A program made the position numbers and the translations under genes. Of a DNA stretch of 36,174 bases, positions 3,590 to 9,423 are shown piece by piece. The stretch comes from Acidobacteria bacterium RIFCSPLOWO2_02_FULL_65_29 (GTDB lineage: Bacteria > Acidobacteriota > Vicinamibacteria > Vicinamibacterales > CAVVIG01): NCBI GenBank assembly GCA_001767435.1, contig MEKT01000056.1, forward strand, positions 1 through 36,174. Reading direction: 5' to 3'. Numbering within the stretch: position 1 is the first letter of the stretch; each line of letters starts with the position of its first letter. Below the pieces are notes generated by a model. That model was given only the letters and a program-made list of their open reading frames with translations, did no database searches and was not told where the DNA came from.

Positions 3590-4354
3590 TCAGCTTTCCG
3601 ATGACAACGAGATGTTTTTCACGAACTCAGCAAGACTGTCAAGGTCAGGGAACAATGTAGCCCGACGGTATCCCAGAGCATTGAGTTCTCCGCGCAGCTC
3701 CTCCTTGGCGCTTCCTAAAATGACGTACTGAATCAGAACTTCTGAAGCCCACGCCTCTGCATTCAAGGGTGTCGGAGTGTTGTGGAGCGTGTACCGACCA
3801 TGTTGGAGAAGCATCCGCAGGTCAATCTCGGTGCCAAGTACGGCCATGCAGGTCTCGGCCCCCGCAGCATCACCGACAGACTGGCCAAACGCCGATTTGA
3901 TCATCCTGAGCGACGACGGATGTGACGGCGCCGGGATTACGCCCTGGCCAATCGTTCTCTGATTGAGGTTAAACGGACCAAGAGACCAAAGCGCGGCGTC
4001 ATTGGATTCATGATTCAAGGTGGCGAAGTAAGCGGCGACCAGAACTGACTCCGTCCAATCCAGAAGGCGAGTGGGTAACCGATAATGCTGGGCCAACTGG
4101 AGCCAGCGATCTAGATCGGTCGGAGCCGGGCACTTCTTGTACCGCGTGGGAGCAAATGCCTGAAACAGAACAAGCAGATCTGGCTCGGAAAGACCCTGGG
4201 GGCGTGGCCGGAACACTCCCGGAACGAGATCATGGGTAACCTGAGGAAGGCCTCTCCACCAAGTAGTCAGGGGAAAGCGCTGACGAGCTTCTGTCGCCGC
4301 TTTGAGCAACTCAGCGAGTGATGAGATCGTTATCGATGAGCGCAGGTTGTTCAT
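3590..4354 (-). CDS. FRG-domain protein (cassette gene)
   Basis: The product is about 254 residues from ATG 4354, which follows directly after the end of the upstream attC; a longer reading would start inside that site. The FRG domain is clear: the name-giving motif appears as WWRGLPQ near residue 30, and AQHYRLPTRLLDWTESVLVAAYFA near the centre matches the conserved QHYGLPTRLLDWT block of the family. FRG proteins are common in mobile and defence islands, but their activity is not firmly established, so no reaction is assigned. Cytoplasmic, no signal peptide. No strong ribosome site is visible, as is common for the first gene position after an attC. Base composition looks less G+C-rich than the core genes. 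Confidence 0.85.
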   Translation of the reverse strand: MNNLRSSITISSLAELLKAATEARQRFPLTTWWRGLPQVTHDLVPGVFRPRPQGLSEPDLLVLFQAFAPTRYKKCPAPTDLDRWLQLAQHYRLPTRLLDWTESVLVAAYFATLNHESNDAALWSLGPFNLNQRTIGQGVIPAPSHPSSLRMIKSAFGQSVGDAAGAETCMAVLGTEIDLRMLLQHGRYTLHNTPTPLNAEAWASEVLIQYVILGSAKEELRGELNALGYRRATLFPDLDSLAEFVKNISLSSES

Positions 4355-4359
4355 GTGCT

Positions 4360-4422
4360 TGCTAACGTTGGCGTTCACCCGCGGCCGCTCACGATCGCAC
4401 CAGCGGCCGTCGGGTGCAACGC
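4360..4422 (-). other. attC site, right part; interrupted by the IS element (last 9 bp at 5893-5901)
   Basis: The plus strand reads TGCTAAC at 4360-4366 and then follows the attC at 6914-6986 closely as far as GGTGCAACGC, ending at 4422. There the match stops abruptly and resumes after the IS with GTGTTGGGC at 5893-5901. Joining 4422 to 5893 gives a 72 bp site against 73 bp for the intact relative. The minus-strand arm again has an extra G and an extra A six bases apart. Confidence 0.85.
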
Positions 4423-4512
4423 CTTGATTCTTATTCAGCCCTCCCCCTGCACCTACCAACTGGGTAGGCTCAGCGCAGGAACATGCGCGTATCCGCGCAG
4501 GAGGAGAGCCGA

Positions 4513-5554
4513 ATGAGATTCTACAACCGTCAGCATCGCCACTATTGCGGACTCGATCTCCACGTGAAGACCACGTACGTGTGCATTCTCGATGTCACCG
4601 GCCAGGTGCTGGTGCACCGCAACGTGAAATCGACACCGGAGGCGTTCCTCGAGATCGTCGCGCCGTACCGCGACGATCTGGTCGTGGCGGTCGAGTGCAT
4701 GTTCACGTGGTACTGGCTGGCCGACCTGTGCGCCGCGGAAGGCATCGCGTTCGTCTTAGGCCACGCTCGCGATGAAAGCGATCCACGGCGGCAAGGCCAA
4801 GAACGACAAGATCGACTCGCACAAGATCGCGATCCTGTTGCGCGGCGGCCTGGTGCCGCAGGCCTACGTCTACCCAGCCGCGATGCGGTCGACGCGCGAT
4901 CTCTTGCGGCGGCGGCTCCATCTGGTGCGAAAGCGCGGCGAGCTCCTCGCGCACATTCAGAATACGCGCGCGCAGTACAACCTCCCGGAATTCAACCGGC
5001 GGCTCGCCTACCCCACGAACCGCGACGGCGTCGGCGAGCACTTTATTGATCCGAGTGTGCGCAAGAGCGTCGACGTCGATCTCGCGCTCATCGACCAGTA
5101 CGAAGGGCTGATCAACGACCTCGAGGTGACCCTCGTGCGGGACGCCAAGCGCCACGACGCGGATGCGTTCCACCGCCTCCGTTCGGTCCCCGGCATTGGC
5201 AAGATCCTAGCGATGACGATCCTCTATGAGATCCACGACATTACTCGCTTTGATCGCGTGCAGGAGTTCGCGTCGTACGCGCGGCTGGTCAAGTGTGCCA
5301 AGGAGTCCGGCGGCAAGAAGCTCGGCACAGGCGGCGCGAAGATGGGCAACGTGCATCTGAAATGGGCGTTCTCCGAGGCCGCTGTGCTGTTCCTGCGTCA
5401 TACGAAGGACGGCAAGAAGATCCTGGCAGGGATCGAGAAGAAGCACGGCAAAGGGAAAGCGCTCTCGATCCTCGCCCACAAAATTGGGCGAGCCGTGTTT
5501 TACATGCTCTCGCGAGGGACGGTCTTCTCGATGGAGAAGTTCCACGCGGCGTAG
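4513..5554 (+). pseudogene. IS110-family transposase (DEDD), frameshifted
   Basis: ATG 4513 follows a strong GGAGGAG site. The N-terminal RuvC-like DEDD domain shows its acidic residues in GLDLHVKTTY, VAVECMFTWYW and, after the shift, KNDKIDSHK. The C-terminal Transposase_20 part contains LRSVPGIGKI and the serine-bearing region ASYARLVKCAKESGGK. Translation is broken near 4762-4770: the first frame runs to GHARD, while the continuation MKAIHGGKAKNDKID is in the next frame. Restoring one GC in the GC repeat of CACGCTCGCG would rejoin them, so a 2-base deletion in a repeat is the simplest cause. Total restored length of about 347 residues is normal for the family. Unless recoded, the enzyme is inactive. 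Confidence 0.9.
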
Positions 5555-5892
5555 CGAGCAAGGGAGCGGGCGAGCCAGACGTCTCACTCGAGCCAGTCGG
5601 GACCGAGCTCGTCACCGATCGCGACCACGCGTGCGCCGCTGAGCGCCACGAGCCGACGATCATGAGCTTGAAGGTCCGGCAGCGAGCAGCTTTGATGGGA
5701 CGTCCGCTCTCTCCCCCGCCATGCACACGCGTTCACGGGATGAGCTGCCCCTCCCCGAGCCTGGCGACAACTGACGCGCGCACGCGACGTCGCTTCTCTT
5801 GAGGAGGCCGGTATGAGGGCCCGTATGAGTTTCTAGGCCGCGCGGGTTACACGACCCTCGCACTTCGCCACGCGAAGCTTGAGCCTCAATAG
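5555..5892 (+). ncRNA. Right noncoding end of the IS; candidate bridge (seek) RNA region
   Basis: About 338 bases without a gene follow the transposase up to the element's right end. In IS1111-type elements this position encodes the structured RNA that pairs with target and donor DNA. The word ACACGCGTT at 5725-5733 equals the minus-strand target sequence across the reconstructed insertion point (GCCCAACAC joined to GCGTTGCACC). Several G+C-rich inverted repeats are present, but I could not fold the RNA. The location is family-based; the RNA itself is inferred. Confidence 0.4.
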
Positions 5893-5901
5893 GTGTTGGG
5901 C

Positions 5902-6081
5902 CCGCACCCACATCGGTGTGGAAGCCTGCTCTGGAAACGAAGACGGCACTGAACGGGACGCGTTGATTCGGAAGCTATTTCTTACGGTCACGCGTCTTCT
6001 TGACTCGACGACCGGACGGAGAAGATCTGCCCACTTGACGCGGGGAGGGCTGATAGGTGGTTAGGCGTCTCGCCAACCAGC
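5902..6081. other. Noncoding stretch between the IS-split attC and the next cassette gene
   Basis: About 180 bases with no convincing gene. A GTTAGGC at 6060-6066 could be one end of another attC belonging to the gene at 6082-6882, but I could not find its partner. A bulged inverted repeat around it (GGTTAGGCG ... CGCCAACC) directly follows the stop codon of that gene and could be a terminator hairpin. A second small hairpin (CCACA ... TGTGG) lies near 5908-5920. Confidence 0.4.
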
Positions 6082-6882
6082 CTAGAATGAGACACCGCCT
6101 TGTTCGTCGGTTTGCTCGCCGGCCTCCGGAAGTACAGCGACGATTTCGATGGTCCGTCTTACCAAGTCGAGCGCGACCAGAACCGAGTTCTGTACGTGCT
6201 GCGGCACTTCTCTGAGCTGACCGATAAAGTGCTCAATGTCAACCGGCTGAAGAATGTGGCGCCCGGCCCGAAGCGTCATCAAGGCCTGGAAGAGCTCGCC
6301 CCACGAGATATGAGGCACCTCGTAGCGCAGCGTACCGTCCGAGAAGGTGCATGCGCGTCGTGCAAGGGCCCACTCGGTTTTGCCGGTCGCCGCAAAGTCG
6401 TCAAACATCTTATACGGTTCCAATTCCTCTGCTGCCGGCCCATCCGCACCTGCGGATTCAATCATGAGGAAGGGGGCGCGCCAATGAAGCGAGAAGGAGG
6501 ATCGTGGCTCCAGGGATGGTATCTGCAGTGGCCTGGTGAAATTGGTCAGGTGTAAACACTCCTGCTGAAACCGTACGTCAGTGAAGTAAGGAAACGCGTA
6601 GAAGACCCAGTCGTGAAACGTCGGCTTCTGAAGGGCGCGAAGCTGTGTCAAGTCCAGACGGAACCGCAGGAGGCCTTCGGCGCCTCGCTGAGGTGACTTG
6701 AACTGCAGCGCAAACACGGCAAACGGGCCGTCGGCCCCATTGAATGCATAGAGTCGGTCGAACGGGTAGACCGCCTCCACGGGCTGGGTGACGGCAGAGT
6801 AGCGCACGCGGAATCCAGCTGCTGTGAAATAATCGGCGATCTGCTTGGACGCCCAATCCGTGTAGAGAGCTTCAGGAAGCAT
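6082..6882 (-). CDS. Hypothetical cassette protein, possible PD-(D/E)XK-like fold
   Basis: The product is 266 residues from ATG 6882 (an in-frame TTG lies two codons earlier), starting 31 bases after the end of an attC. I do not recognise the family. The N-terminal part begins with a helix (WASKQIADYFTAAGFRVRY), followed by YPFDRLYAF and then FAVFALQFKSPQR with a downstream FRLDLTQL; the order helix, D, Q-x-K resembles the core of PD-(D/E)XK nucleases and DUF4365-like proteins, with Q in place of E. The C-terminal half has a conserved-looking PHISWGELFQALMTLRAGRHIL. No signal peptide or membrane segment. The nuclease link is only a pattern inference. Confidence 0.6.
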   Translation of the reverse strand: MLPEALYTDWASKQIADYFTAAGFRVRYSAVTQPVEAVYPFDRLYAFNGADGPFAVFALQFKSPQRGAEGLLRFRLDLTQLRALQKPTFHDWVFYAFPYFTDVRFQQECLHLTNFTRPLQIPSLEPRSSFSLHWRAPFLMIESAGADGPAAEELEPYKMFDDFAATGKTEWALARRACTFSDGTLRYEVPHISWGELFQALMTLRAGRHILQPVDIEHFIGQLREVPQHVQNSVLVALDLVRRTIEIVAVLPEAGEQTDEQGGVSF

Positions 6883-6913
6883 TCTCAACCGCCTGCGTTG
6901 CTAATCTCAAAAC

Positions 6914-6986
6914 GCCTAACGGATAGCGTTCACCAGCGGCCGCTCATGATGGCGCCAGTGGCCGTCTGGTGCAACGCGTGTTAGGC
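6914..6986 (-). other. attC site downstream of the nucleosidase gene
   Basis: This 73 bp site is bounded by GCCTAAC (6914-6920) and GTTAGGC (6980-6986). The arms GCGTTCACCAGCGGCC and GGCCGTCTGGTGCAACGC pair throughout, leaving on the minus strand one extra G and one extra A, six bases apart, in the 5' arm. These are the extrahelical bases that orient an attC, so the site points along the minus strand, as the genes do. It begins 11 bases after the stop of the nucleosidase gene and ends 31 bases before the start of the next. Confidence 0.9.
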
Positions 6987-6997
6987 GGAGCGTTCTT

Positions 6998-7828
6998 CTA
7001 TCGGACCCCTTCTCTTAGATTAGCGACAATTGTCGCTACGAGCGCAGCAGCATTCTCGCTTGCCGTCGCCAGAAACTGTTCGTAGCTGATCAGCGCCTGT
7101 CCGTCAGCGCGATCCGTGATGCTTCTGATGACAAGGCATGCAACACCAAATTGGCGGCAGGTTTGGACAACGGCTGCCCCCTCCATTTCGATGGCGGTTG
7201 CGCCAAGCGTGTCGCGCAATGCGCCCCGTCGAGCGATATCAGCAAGAAACACATCGCCTGTAACGATGACTCCCTCGACGATCCGCGGCGTGTGATCTCT
7301 ACCATCCGCCGTCCGAACTGGCGGCAATCGCAGACCACTGGCGGAGCGTCGCGCCACCTCCAACAGTGCCTCTGGCGCCGGGACGAGAAGCGGATCGAGA
7401 TCGCCTGTTACGGCGTTTCTCATCCCACGCCGCCGTACTCCATCTGTTGTTTGCAGTCCGACGTCGTGCTGTGCCACCGTTGCACCAATCACGACATCGC
7501 CTTGGTTCAGCGCCGGATCGACAGCGCCCGCCGTTCCCGAGAAGAGAAGCGCTGACGGATTGAACTGACCGATCAGCAGCGTGGTAATGATCGCGGCGTT
7601 GACCTTGCCAGCGCCGGAACGCCCGATTACAACCTGCTGTCCATCTAGCGTGCCGACGCGAAATACGTAGCCTCTGACAGAGACTTCACGACTCTCTTGA
7701 AGGCGCTTTTCGATAGGAGCAATCTCGCTAGCAATGCCCAGAATGCCGACGATGGACTGGGCCAGCGCGGTCGTCGGAACGACAAGGAGTAGAAGTGTTG
7801 CCGCAACGAGACGTGCTCTGGGACTCAT
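6998..7828 (-). CDS. Exported MTA/SAH-nucleosidase-like phosphorylase-superfamily enzyme (cassette gene)
   Basis: The product is 276 residues from ATG 7828, with a GGAGG ribosome site, starting about 50 bases after a GTTAGGC box. The first 24 residues form a signal peptide (MSPRAR, hydrophobic LVAATLLLLVV, ALA-QS). The rest fits the PNP_UDP_1 superfamily and most resembles 5'-methylthioadenosine/S-adenosylhomocysteine nucleosidase: IVGILGIASEIAPI (the N-terminal strand with the catalytic-type acid), SGTAGAVDPALNQGDVVIG, and near residue 220 the purine-site block IEMEGAAVVQTCRQFGV followed by RSITDRAD. These enzymes cleave the N-glycosidic bond of adenosine derivatives. Export to the periplasm is unusual for this intracellular activity. 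Substrate specificity cannot be fixed from sequence alone. Confidence 0.85.
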   Translation of the reverse strand: MSPRARLVAATLLLLVVPTTALAQSIVGILGIASEIAPIEKRLQESREVSVRGYVFRVGTLDGQQVVIGRSGAGKVNAAIITTLLIGQFNPSALLFSGTAGAVDPALNQGDVVIGATVAQHDVGLQTTDGVRRRGMRNAVTGDLDPLLVPAPEALLEVARRSASGLRLPPVRTADGRDHTPRIVEGVIVTGDVFLADIARRGALRDTLGATAIEMEGAAVVQTCRQFGVACLVIRSITDRADGQALISYEQFLATASENAAALVATIVANLREGVR

Positions 7829-7876
7829 TCTTACCTCCACCGAACCCTCGCCCGTTTCCAGGTGGTGTGGATTTCC

Positions 7877-8188
7877 GCCTAACGCGTATTGAAGTGGACC
7901 GCACGGCCCTGCGCGCGGCCAACCGCGCCACCCGCCCAAGTCGACTTCACTCCTATGTGTCCGGAGCGGCGGATGTTAGCACGCCGCGGCCCATTGGACC
8001 GTCGTCGTGGTTGACTGCCGCCACGGGATTGGCTGCGGCGGCTGCAGCCAACCACCGACGACGTGCCGGCAGCATCTGCGAGACAAGTGCCGCTGGCGCC
8101 ATAGCTTGACCAATTCAGGCAGGAGAAGGTGGTCGCGCGACTGGCGGCGGGTCTTGCAGCCACCCACCTCCGCCCGGCGTCACAGCCG
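7877..8188. repeat. 310-bp duplicated noncoding segment, copy 1 (with attC-like core)
   Basis: From GCCTAAC to the ACAGCCG at its end this segment is nearly identical to 9978-10287. It contains an attC-like block (GCCTAAC 7877-7883 to GTTAGCA 7975-7981, with TGAAGTGGAC facing GTCGACTTCA) and, further on, a long imperfect hairpin (about 8001-8062) with arms GTCGTCGTGGTTG and CAACCACCGACGAC. It lies between the PH-like gene and the nucleosidase gene, each time adjoining a cassette gene start on the minus strand. No gene is seen inside. The minus strand reads TGCTAACAT at the GTTAGCA box, a possible promoter. Confidence 0.85.
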
Positions 8189-8193
8189 CACGC

Positions 8194-8571
8194 CTACCTG
8201 AGCACATACCCAGCGAGGACCGCCTGAACCTCGTAGATGCTGAGCTTCTTGTTGAACTGCAGCTGAAGTGGGGCAGGCGTGCCTGACAGCCAAATCTTCA
8301 GCTCCGCGTCCCGGTCAAACTGACCAGCGGTTTCCACACTAAACCGAGTAATGCTTCTGTAGGGGATGGACTGGTACTCGACCTTGCTACCGGTAATCCC
8401 CTGCCGGTTAACAAAAATGAGTCGTCGATCCGTGAACAAGAACATATCGCGGATCAATTGGTACGCTTTCTCGATCCGCTCTTGCGCAGCCAAGATCTGC
8501 GCGAAGTCTGCTTGCGCTTTCACGACGTCCACCTCACTCGCATTCCCCATCAGGCTGTCAAGCAACCCCAC
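8194..8571 (-). CDS. Small PH-like domain protein (cassette gene)
   Basis: The product is 125 residues. The GTG at 8571 is chosen because a perfect GGAGGT site precedes it; the internal ATG at 8550 lacks one. After an N-terminal helical part the bulk of the protein is a bacterial PH-like domain of the YokE/bPH type: MFLFTDRRLIFVNRQGITGSK, YQSIPYRSITRFSVE, then alternating strands ending in a C-terminal helix. Such domains occur alone in many bacteria without a settled function; binding of lipid or protein is possible. It has no signal peptide or membrane span. Its C-terminal domain type recalls that of the TerB/PH gene at 2366-3460, though the two are not close in sequence. Confidence 0.8.
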   Translation of the reverse strand: MGLLDSLMGNASEVDVVKAQADFAQILAAQERIEKAYQLIRDMFLFTDRRLIFVNRQGITGSKVEYQSIPYRSITRFSVETAGQFDRDAELKIWLSGTPAPLQLQFNKKLSIYEVQAVLAGYVLR

Positions 8572-8704
8572 GCCGACCTCCTCTCAAGGTGACGTCGTAC
8601 CCATTCCCGCCGTCCGGTAGACGACTCAACGTCGCGGCGACGCGGGGATGCACGGCAGAAGCGTCCCCATCGTCTACGACCTTGCGCATGCGTTTCCCGT
8701 GTCC

Positions 8705-8761
8705 GCCGAACGTTGCGGCTCACCCGCGGCCGCCTGTCGTTCACGCAGCCGCTTGTTGGGC
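8705..8761 (-). other. Probable attC site upstream of the toxin-antitoxin genes
   Basis: This 57 bp site runs from GCCGAAC (8705-8711) to GTTGGGC (8755-8761). GCGGCT and AGCCGC pair, with one extra G on the minus-strand 5' arm as in the better sites; the inner part pairs poorly. It closes the cassette holding the toxin-antitoxin pair when the array is read on the minus strand. In front of it, 8617-8677 holds a further imperfect inverted repeat (GTAGACGA ... TCGTCTAC) of unknown meaning. Confidence 0.6.
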
Positions 8762-8782
8762 TGCACCGCTCGGGTCTAGAAT
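8753..8782 (+). promoter_or_regulatory. Promoter of the toxin-antitoxin genes, overlapping the attC end; probably leaderless
   Basis: TTGTTG (8753-8758) lies 18 bases before TAGAAT (8777-8782). The start codon ATG begins at 8789, six bases after the -10 box, so transcription would begin at or next to the start codon. No ribosome site is present, which fits a leaderless mRNA. The -35 box overlaps the GTTGGGC core of the attC. Confidence 0.5.
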
Positions 8783-8788
8783 GGCCAC

Positions 8789-9034
8789 ATGACGTCGCGA
8801 GCGCAAGAACTTCTTCGAGAAGCCTTGACCTTACCCACCGAGGAACGCGCGGATGTGGCCGCTGAACTCCTTGCGAGTTTGGATGAACCAGCGACGATGG
8901 ATCCGGTGGCAATTGAAGCGGCGTGGGCTCGTGAAATTGAAAGACGCGCCAGGCGTGTGATGGCGGGTGAGTCGGCTGGCGAACCGTGGGAGGACGTGCG
9001 CGCGCGCGTCGCCCGGCGGTTGGCCGAACGATGA
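8789..9034 (+). CDS. Antitoxin of a RelE/ParE-type toxin-antitoxin pair (addiction module component)
   Basis: The product is 81 residues and acidic to amphipathic helical. It matches the small 'putative addiction module component' antitoxin family: the start SRAQELLREALTLPTEERADVAAELLASLDE is typical, followed by AIEAAWAREIERRARRV and a C-terminal part ending in VARRLAER. Such antitoxins bind and neutralise a RelE/ParE-fold toxin and usually repress their own operon. The stop overlaps the toxin start (ATGA). The pair is on the plus strand, opposite to all other cassette genes, and appears to have its own promoter. In integron arrays such pairs are thought to stabilise the array. Confidence 0.9.
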   Translation: MTSRAQELLREALTLPTEERADVAAELLASLDEPATMDPVAIEAAWAREIERRARRVMAGESAGEPWEDVRARVARRLAER

Positions 9035-9348
9035 ACCGCTCCTTCCGTCCCGAGCCTGAAGCCTCCGTCGAACTCGAACACGCCGCCCTGTGGTACGAAC
9101 ACGAACGGCCGGGTCTTGGCGCGGAATTCCTCGATGCCATTGATGCCACGCTCGATCGAATCGCTCAATGGCCTGATGCCGCTCCACGAGTTGGCGGCCT
9201 TCCCTCCGACGTGCCCGCGCGTCGAGCGCCGGTGAGCGGCTTTCCCTACCACATCGCGTACCTGGTGATGCCGGCGGCCATCCGGATCCTGGCATTCGCG
9301 CACGACAACCGAGAACCTGGGTACTGGTTTTCTCGAGTTAAGGGATAG
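9031..9348 (+). CDS. RelE/ParE-family toxin
   Basis: The product is 105 residues from ATG 9031, which overlaps the antitoxin stop. Its signature is that of the plasmid stabilisation / ParE-RelE superfamily: PEASVELEHAALWYEHERPGLGAEFLDAIDATLDRIAQWPDAAP at the start, the basic strand PARRAPVSGFPYHIAYLV in the middle and ILAFAHDNREPGYWFSR at the end. These toxins either cleave ribosome-bound mRNA or inhibit gyrase; the sequence does not tell which. An alternative start at 8986 would lie within the antitoxin gene and is rejected. The attC at 9361 begins 13 bases after the stop. Confidence 0.9.
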   Translation: MNRSFRPEPEASVELEHAALWYEHERPGLGAEFLDAIDATLDRIAQWPDAAPRVGGLPSDVPARRAPVSGFPYHIAYLVMPAAIRILAFAHDNREPGYWFSRVKG

Positions 9349-9360
9349 TTCCCTCAGTCA

Positions 9361-9423
9361 GCCCAACGATACTGGAATTCAGCGGCGGGGCGAAGCCCCG
9401 TCCGCTGCAATTCCGGGTTGAGC
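9361..9423 (-). other. attC site between the toxin gene and the next cassette
   Basis: This 63 bp site is the most regular in the array: GCCCAAC (9361-9367) ... GTTGAGC (9417-9423), arms GGAATTCAGCGG and CCGCTGCAATTCC, and a terminal hairpin CGGGGC-GAA-GCCCCG. On the minus strand the 5' arm has one extra G and one extra A, six bases apart. It starts 8 bases after the stop of the minus-strand gene 9431-9947, so it is that gene's attC. Confidence 0.9.

What the first reader, a model, noticed from the sequence alone, without database searches (positions are those of the whole stretch)
5725..5733. Candidate target guide of a bridge (seek) RNA in the IS right end
Seen: the 338-base noncoding right end contains ACACGCGTT, which equals nine consecutive bases of the reconstructed attC on the minus strand and spans the insertion point (AACAC joined to GCGTT). 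Known: IS110-family recombinases use an element-encoded RNA whose loops pair with target and donor; in the IS1111 group it lies downstream of the transposase gene. Inferred: the word is the target-binding segment. Caution: the word contains the palindrome ACGCGT, so a chance match is not negligible.
Basis: partly seen in the sequence, partly recalled or inferred. Interest (0 to 1): 0.75.

Follow-up and report, generated by a model that had tools for sequence, protein, structure and literature searches.

The report
Bridge RNA of integron-targeting insertion sequence

Summary
The word ACACGCGTT is at 5725-5733, but it is not the target guide. The noncoding right end is about 502 nt, not 338, and the correctly joined attC lacks the word. 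Close relatives in other attC sites keep the word. From about 75 distinct insertions I mapped a two-loop bridge/seek RNA: right target guide 5581-5587, left target guide 5689-5694, right donor guide 5825-5829, left donor guide 5889-5895. The left target guide covaries with each copy's own left flank (z 6.7; held-out copies z 4-5); donor guides covary with the ends (z 10.4 and 5.0); the target loop's basal stem has 8 of 11 pairs with two-sided changes. ISEc11, with a published seekRNA, shows the same order. A new member of a known kind (attC-targeting IS1111 with bridge/seekRNA). The copy here is decayed: a 2-nt deletion in the transposase gene and a degenerate right target guide.

The parts
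4425..6059 (+). IS1111-type element inserted in an attC; body 4427-6057 with core TG at 4425-4426 and 6058-6059
   Evidence: 12-bp perfect subterminal repeats; same ends in about 50 relatives; empty and filled paralogous attCs in L187 give core TG
4435..4446 (+). left subterminal inverted repeat TCAGCCCTCCCC
6042..6053 (+). right subterminal inverted repeat GGGGAGGGCTGA
4513..5554 (+). DEDD/Transposase_20 transposase gene, broken by a 2-nt deletion at about 4768
   Evidence: Pfam PF01548 and PF02371; alignment with intact relatives; start codon inferred from an upstream AGGAGG
5555..6056 (+). noncoding right end encoding the bridge/seek RNA
5561..5712 (+). target-binding hairpin; basal stem 5561-5571 with 5702-5712
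   Evidence: 94.7% of cells paired, 8 of 11 pairs with two-sided changes; own-partner stem energy z -22 in relatives; folds of short relatives z -3.2 to -4.1
5581..5587 (+). right target guide, here GTCTCAC (family GTCTAAC/GCCTAAC), complement of the attC box GTTRRRY on the top strand
   Evidence: near-invariant TAAC in relatives; opposite the left target guide in one loop; covariation not significant
5689..5694 (+). left target guide plus core, GCTTTG, read against left flank GCCTTG (4421-4426), one G-U
   Evidence: covaries with own left flank z 6.7, best register in unbiased scan, held-out z 4.1-4.9
5825..5829 (+). right donor guide ATGAG, complement of the left end CTTAT (4430-4434) with one G-T wobble
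   Evidence: covaries with left end, z 5.0
5829..5938 (+). donor-binding multiloop closed by GTTTC 5829-5833 / GAAAC 5934-5938
   Evidence: fold_alignment A2; also in the minimum-energy fold
   Evidence: covaries with own right end z 10.4
4360..4424 (-). larger part of the interrupted attC
   Evidence: compare the intact attC at 6914-6986
6060..6067 (-). remaining attC box GTTAGGCG (CGCCTAAC on the cassette strand)

Best explanation
The element is an attC-targeting IS1111-type insertion sequence whose about 500-nt right end encodes a bridge (seek) RNA in two folded parts. [quoted passage not shown] 3' part: a multiloop with the right donor guide (pairs with the left IS end) and then the left donor guide (identical to the right IS end plus core). 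The RNA is proposed to bring the IS circle junction and an attC together at a shared TG core so that the DEDD recombinase exchanges strands there. Shown here: ends, core, guide positions, covariation of three of the four guides, and the target-hairpin basal stem. Inferred: transcription, binding by the protein, strand exchange. The window's copy is probably inactive in cis. The word 5725-5733 has no guide role.
For: Ends: repeats; uniform ends in about 50 relatives; own copies with attC left flanks. Core: filled TTATTTATTAGCTTG|ATACTAAT and CATATG|TGTTATAT beside empty TTATTTATTAGCTTGTTATAT in one array. Left target guide: z 6.7, best register in an unbiased scan at z 7.3 with the next unrelated at 4.6, 26 held-out insertions p 1e-4. 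Donor guides: z 10.4 and 5.0, including rare changes such as L045 TAC/TAC and L055/L056 ATACA/ATATA. Stem. Positive control ISEc11: its noncoding region has CAGTATTTT (complement of right target) followed by GTGAAAATA (left target), the order published for IS1111 seekRNAs (PMC11187229). Guide definitions follow PMC11208160.
Against: The right target guide does not covary measurably with the right flank, since both are nearly fixed. The left guide covaries at only about 3 variable bases, and identical attCs in the same array stay empty. In the window's copy the right target guide has a mismatch (TCAC for TAAC) and the attC has an extra G. The fold of the whole region is no more stable than shuffles (z -0.23). 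There are no RNA data.
Confidence: 0.9

Rival explanations
1. The word 5725-5733 is the target guide of the RNA.
Against: The junction was rebuilt from a wrong boundary; the word is absent from the true joined flanks; relatives in other attCs keep it; it lies outside the target hairpin; no covariation signal there.
Confidence: 0.02
2. Guide-flank and guide-end matches reflect shared ancestry rather than function: the IS ends and the noncoding region drift together, and attC flanks look alike.
For: Donor guides and ends are inherited together; many relatives are close.
Against: Left flanks are not inherited with the IS, yet the match holds in held-out insertions and within the gamma clade alone; the register is unique in a full scan.
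Confidence: 0.05
3. The protein recognises the folded attC directly and the conserved RNA-like region is a regulatory leader or terminator rather than a guide.
For: attC sites fold; the IS always lands beside the same invariant box.
Against: Donor guides copy the IS ends precisely and the left guide varies with the spacer; ISEc11 with the same layout needs this region in cis or trans (PMC11187229).
Confidence: 0.04

Closest known systems
seekRNA of IS1111 elements (ISEc11; ISKpn4 and ISPst6, which target attC), PMC11187229
   Same: Noncoding region downstream of the transposase gene; top-strand complement precedes bottom-strand complement; checked on the ISEc11 sequence
   Different: Noncoding region about 430-560 nt here against a 270-bp fragment sufficient for ISEc11; transposase of the clade only about 31% identical to ISEc11 over the aligned part; donor guides also mapped here
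Bridge RNA of IS110 elements (IS621), PMC11208160
   Same: Two loops with left/right target guides and left/right donor guides around a shared dinucleotide core
   Different: Guide order within each loop is reversed, the RNA lies in the right end, and the core is TG
IS1111-attC group (Tetu and Holmes 2008; Post and Hall 2009; known here only through citations)
   Same: IS1111-type elements at a fixed position and orientation in attC
   Different: Sequence relation to ISKpn4, ISPst6 or ISPa25 not tested; close relatives here are in Acidobacteria, Nitrospirae, Deltaproteobacteria, Planctomycetes and marine gammaproteobacteria

Membership tests
IS1111 family | DEDD plus Transposase_20 recombinase | tested here: met
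   PF01548 and PF02371, split by a 2-nt deletion
IS1111 family | 11-13 bp subterminal inverted repeats inset about 7 and 3 bp | tested here: met
   12 bp perfect; uniform heptamer TNCTNAT left and TAN right in relatives
IS1111 family | long noncoding region downstream of the transposase gene | tested here: met
   5555-6056
IS1111 family | circular intermediate with junction promoter | not testable with these tools
   a TTGAC motif lies just before the right repeat; no experiment
IS1111-attC group | insertion at one fixed position of attC | tested here: met
   attC flanks in own copies and most relatives; empty/filled pair
IS1111-attC group | transposase in one clade with ISKpn4/ISPst6/ISPa25 | not tested
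   those sequences were not retrieved
bridge RNA / seekRNA | left target guide matches and follows the target | tested here: met
bridge RNA / seekRNA | right target guide matches and follows the target | tested here: inconclusive
   constant complement TAAC to GTTA; covariation p 0.02-0.75 depending on positions
bridge RNA / seekRNA | donor guides match and follow the IS ends | tested here: met
   z 10.4 and 5.0
bridge RNA / seekRNA | guides in internal loops of a conserved structure | tested here: met
   target loop well supported; donor loop with weaker support
bridge RNA / seekRNA | RNA transcribed and bound by the recombinase | not testable with these tools
   no RNA or protein data

The most novel reading that the evidence does not exclude
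A broad clade of RNA-guided, attC-targeting IS1111 elements, in several phyla, keeps the right target guide fixed on the only invariant attC box while the left target guide drifts to follow the variable attC spacer, so each lineage is naturally reprogrammed to a subset of integron cassettes. The relaxed first core base (T, G or A on the right junction) would follow from the right guide not pairing with it.
Probability: 0.5. Interest if true: 0.55.

Novelty: new member of a known kind. Interest (0 to 1): 0.4.

Why it matters
It corrects a wrong element boundary that a guide RNA can itself cause: the donor guide copies the IS end plus target start, so an internal stretch looks like a junction. 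It also gives about 75 natural insertions in which the target guide can be read against the actual target, useful for working out pairing rules of IS1111 bridge RNAs and for seeing how these elements disrupt integron cassette sites.

Tried and rejected
Rfam gave no match to the right end. A scan of viral contigs found no relative. Searching more Acidobacteria gave few new copies, so marine gammaproteobacteria were used for held-out copies. Right target guide covariation was tested and is not convincing. Folding the whole 431 nt is uninformative. A P. aeruginosa plasmid element (L206) and a second own-genome element (L031) were considered as attC-group comparisons but are a different IS1111 type with repeat TAGCCGGCC. 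The Tetu and Holmes paper is not held. The possibility that 5892/5893 is a nested right end was rejected because L006 and all close relatives carry the same stretch internally. The window's own row in the stem-energy test used a wrong 5' anchor because its right guide is degenerate; its stem was placed directly on the sequence.

Full report
Observation. ACACGCGTT is at 5725-5733. That join is wrong. A perfect 12-bp inverted repeat pairs 4435-4446 with 6042-6053; a second copy in the same genome (L006) is 90% identical from 5784 to 6059 without a break at 5892 and is followed by an attC box, GTTGGGC; and close relatives have the same repeat about 490-512 nt after the transposase gene. The right end is thus about 502 nt. 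The true joined flanks do not contain the word.

What the element is. The gene at 4513-5554 encodes an IS110/IS1111-type DEDD transposase (Pfam PF01548, PF02371), interrupted by a 2-nt deletion near 4768 relative to intact relatives. All own-genome copies with a readable left end are flanked by attC sequence, and those with a right end by an attC-type box. About 50 relatives share the end design: flank ..CTTGA, heptamer TNCTNAT, subterminal repeat, and on the right repeat, TAN, then a box such as GTGTTAGGC. In one array (L187) a filled site and matching empty sites show the core: empty TTATTTATTAGCTTGTTATAT, filled TTATTTATTAGCTTG-ATACTAAT on the left and CATATG-TGTTATAT on the right, so the shared core is TG.

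Guides. Comparing each noncoding region with its own junctions gave four stretches. (1) About 30 nt into the region, RYNTAAC, complement of the attC box GTTRRRY: right target guide, window 5581-5587, here GTCTCAC. (2) About 130 nt in, NNNTTGAT, the sense of the left flank: left target guide, window 5689-5694. (3) About 275 nt in, ATNAG, complement of the left IS end: right donor guide, window 5825-5829. (4) 120-170 nt before the end, ATAxGTGTT, identical to the right IS end plus core: left donor guide, window 5889-5895. Permutation tests: left target guide against own left flank z 6.7 for the three bases before TTGA (n 47); a scan over all registers and both orientations picks exactly this register (z 7.3; next unrelated 4.6); 26 insertions not used in discovery give z 4.1-4.9, p 1e-4, and the gamma clade alone gives z about 6. 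Left donor guide z 10.4, right donor guide z 5.0, with the caveat that ends and guides are inherited together. The right target guide does not covary convincingly, since both partners are nearly fixed.

Structure. The target guides face each other in one internal loop of a hairpin. Its basal stem (5561-5571 with 5702-5712) pairs in 94.7% of cells, against 78.7% when shuffled, with 8 of 11 pairs changed on both sides and covariation 0.501 against 0.204; RNAalifold finds the same stem and leaves most of both guides unpaired. Three relatives with short hairpins fold with z -3.2 to -4.1. The donor guides lie in a multiloop closed by GTTTC/GAAAC, with weaker covariation. The word 5725-5733 lies between these two domains.

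Control. ISEc11, whose seekRNA was sequenced and whose target is GTGAAAATACTG (PMC11187229), was read from a plasmid record (L208; a short stretch with transposase genes around it). Its noncoding region has CAGTATTTT, complement of the right target, then about 26 nt later GTGAAAATA, the left target: the same order as here and as published.

The left donor guide copies the IS end plus core, so 5889-5901 (ATAGGTGTTGGGC) looks like an IS end followed by an attC box. It is identical over 13 bases to the real right junction of L006.

Mechanism, shown and inferred. Shown by sequence: ends, core, guides, covariation, stem. Inferred from the published IS110/IS1111 systems (PMC11208160, PMC11187229): that the RNA is made, binds the recombinase, and brings circle junction and attC together at TG. 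The window's copy is likely inactive in cis.

Noticed in passing
L187 (G688:C1:744400-758000): Three IS copies spaced 4335 and 4334 bp apart with the same cassettes between them: a tandem triplication of an IS-plus-cassette unit in an integron array.
   Followed up: partly
L031 (G000:C49:3123-3875): A second, different IS1111-type element in the same genome (repeat TAGCCGGCC), resembling one on a Pseudomonas aeruginosa plasmid (L206); apparently not in attC.
   Followed up: partly
L002-L005, L010, L011 (own genome): At least six further left ends of this IS lie in different attCs of the same genome, several cut by contig ends, so the element is multicopy and breaks the assembly.
   Followed up: partly
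window 3590-9423: Integron cassette array on the minus strand with intact attCs at 6914-6986 and 9361-9423; cassettes encode an FRG-domain protein (3590-4459), a nucleoside phosphorylase-like protein (6998-7939) and a bacterial PH-domain protein (8194-8571).
   Followed up: no
window 6060: The attC box right of this IS has one more G (TGGTTAGGC) than relatives (TGTTAGGC).
   Followed up: no
L012 and L025: Both have TCAC in place of the near-invariant TAAC of the right target guide; could be shared decay or a real variant.
   Followed up: no
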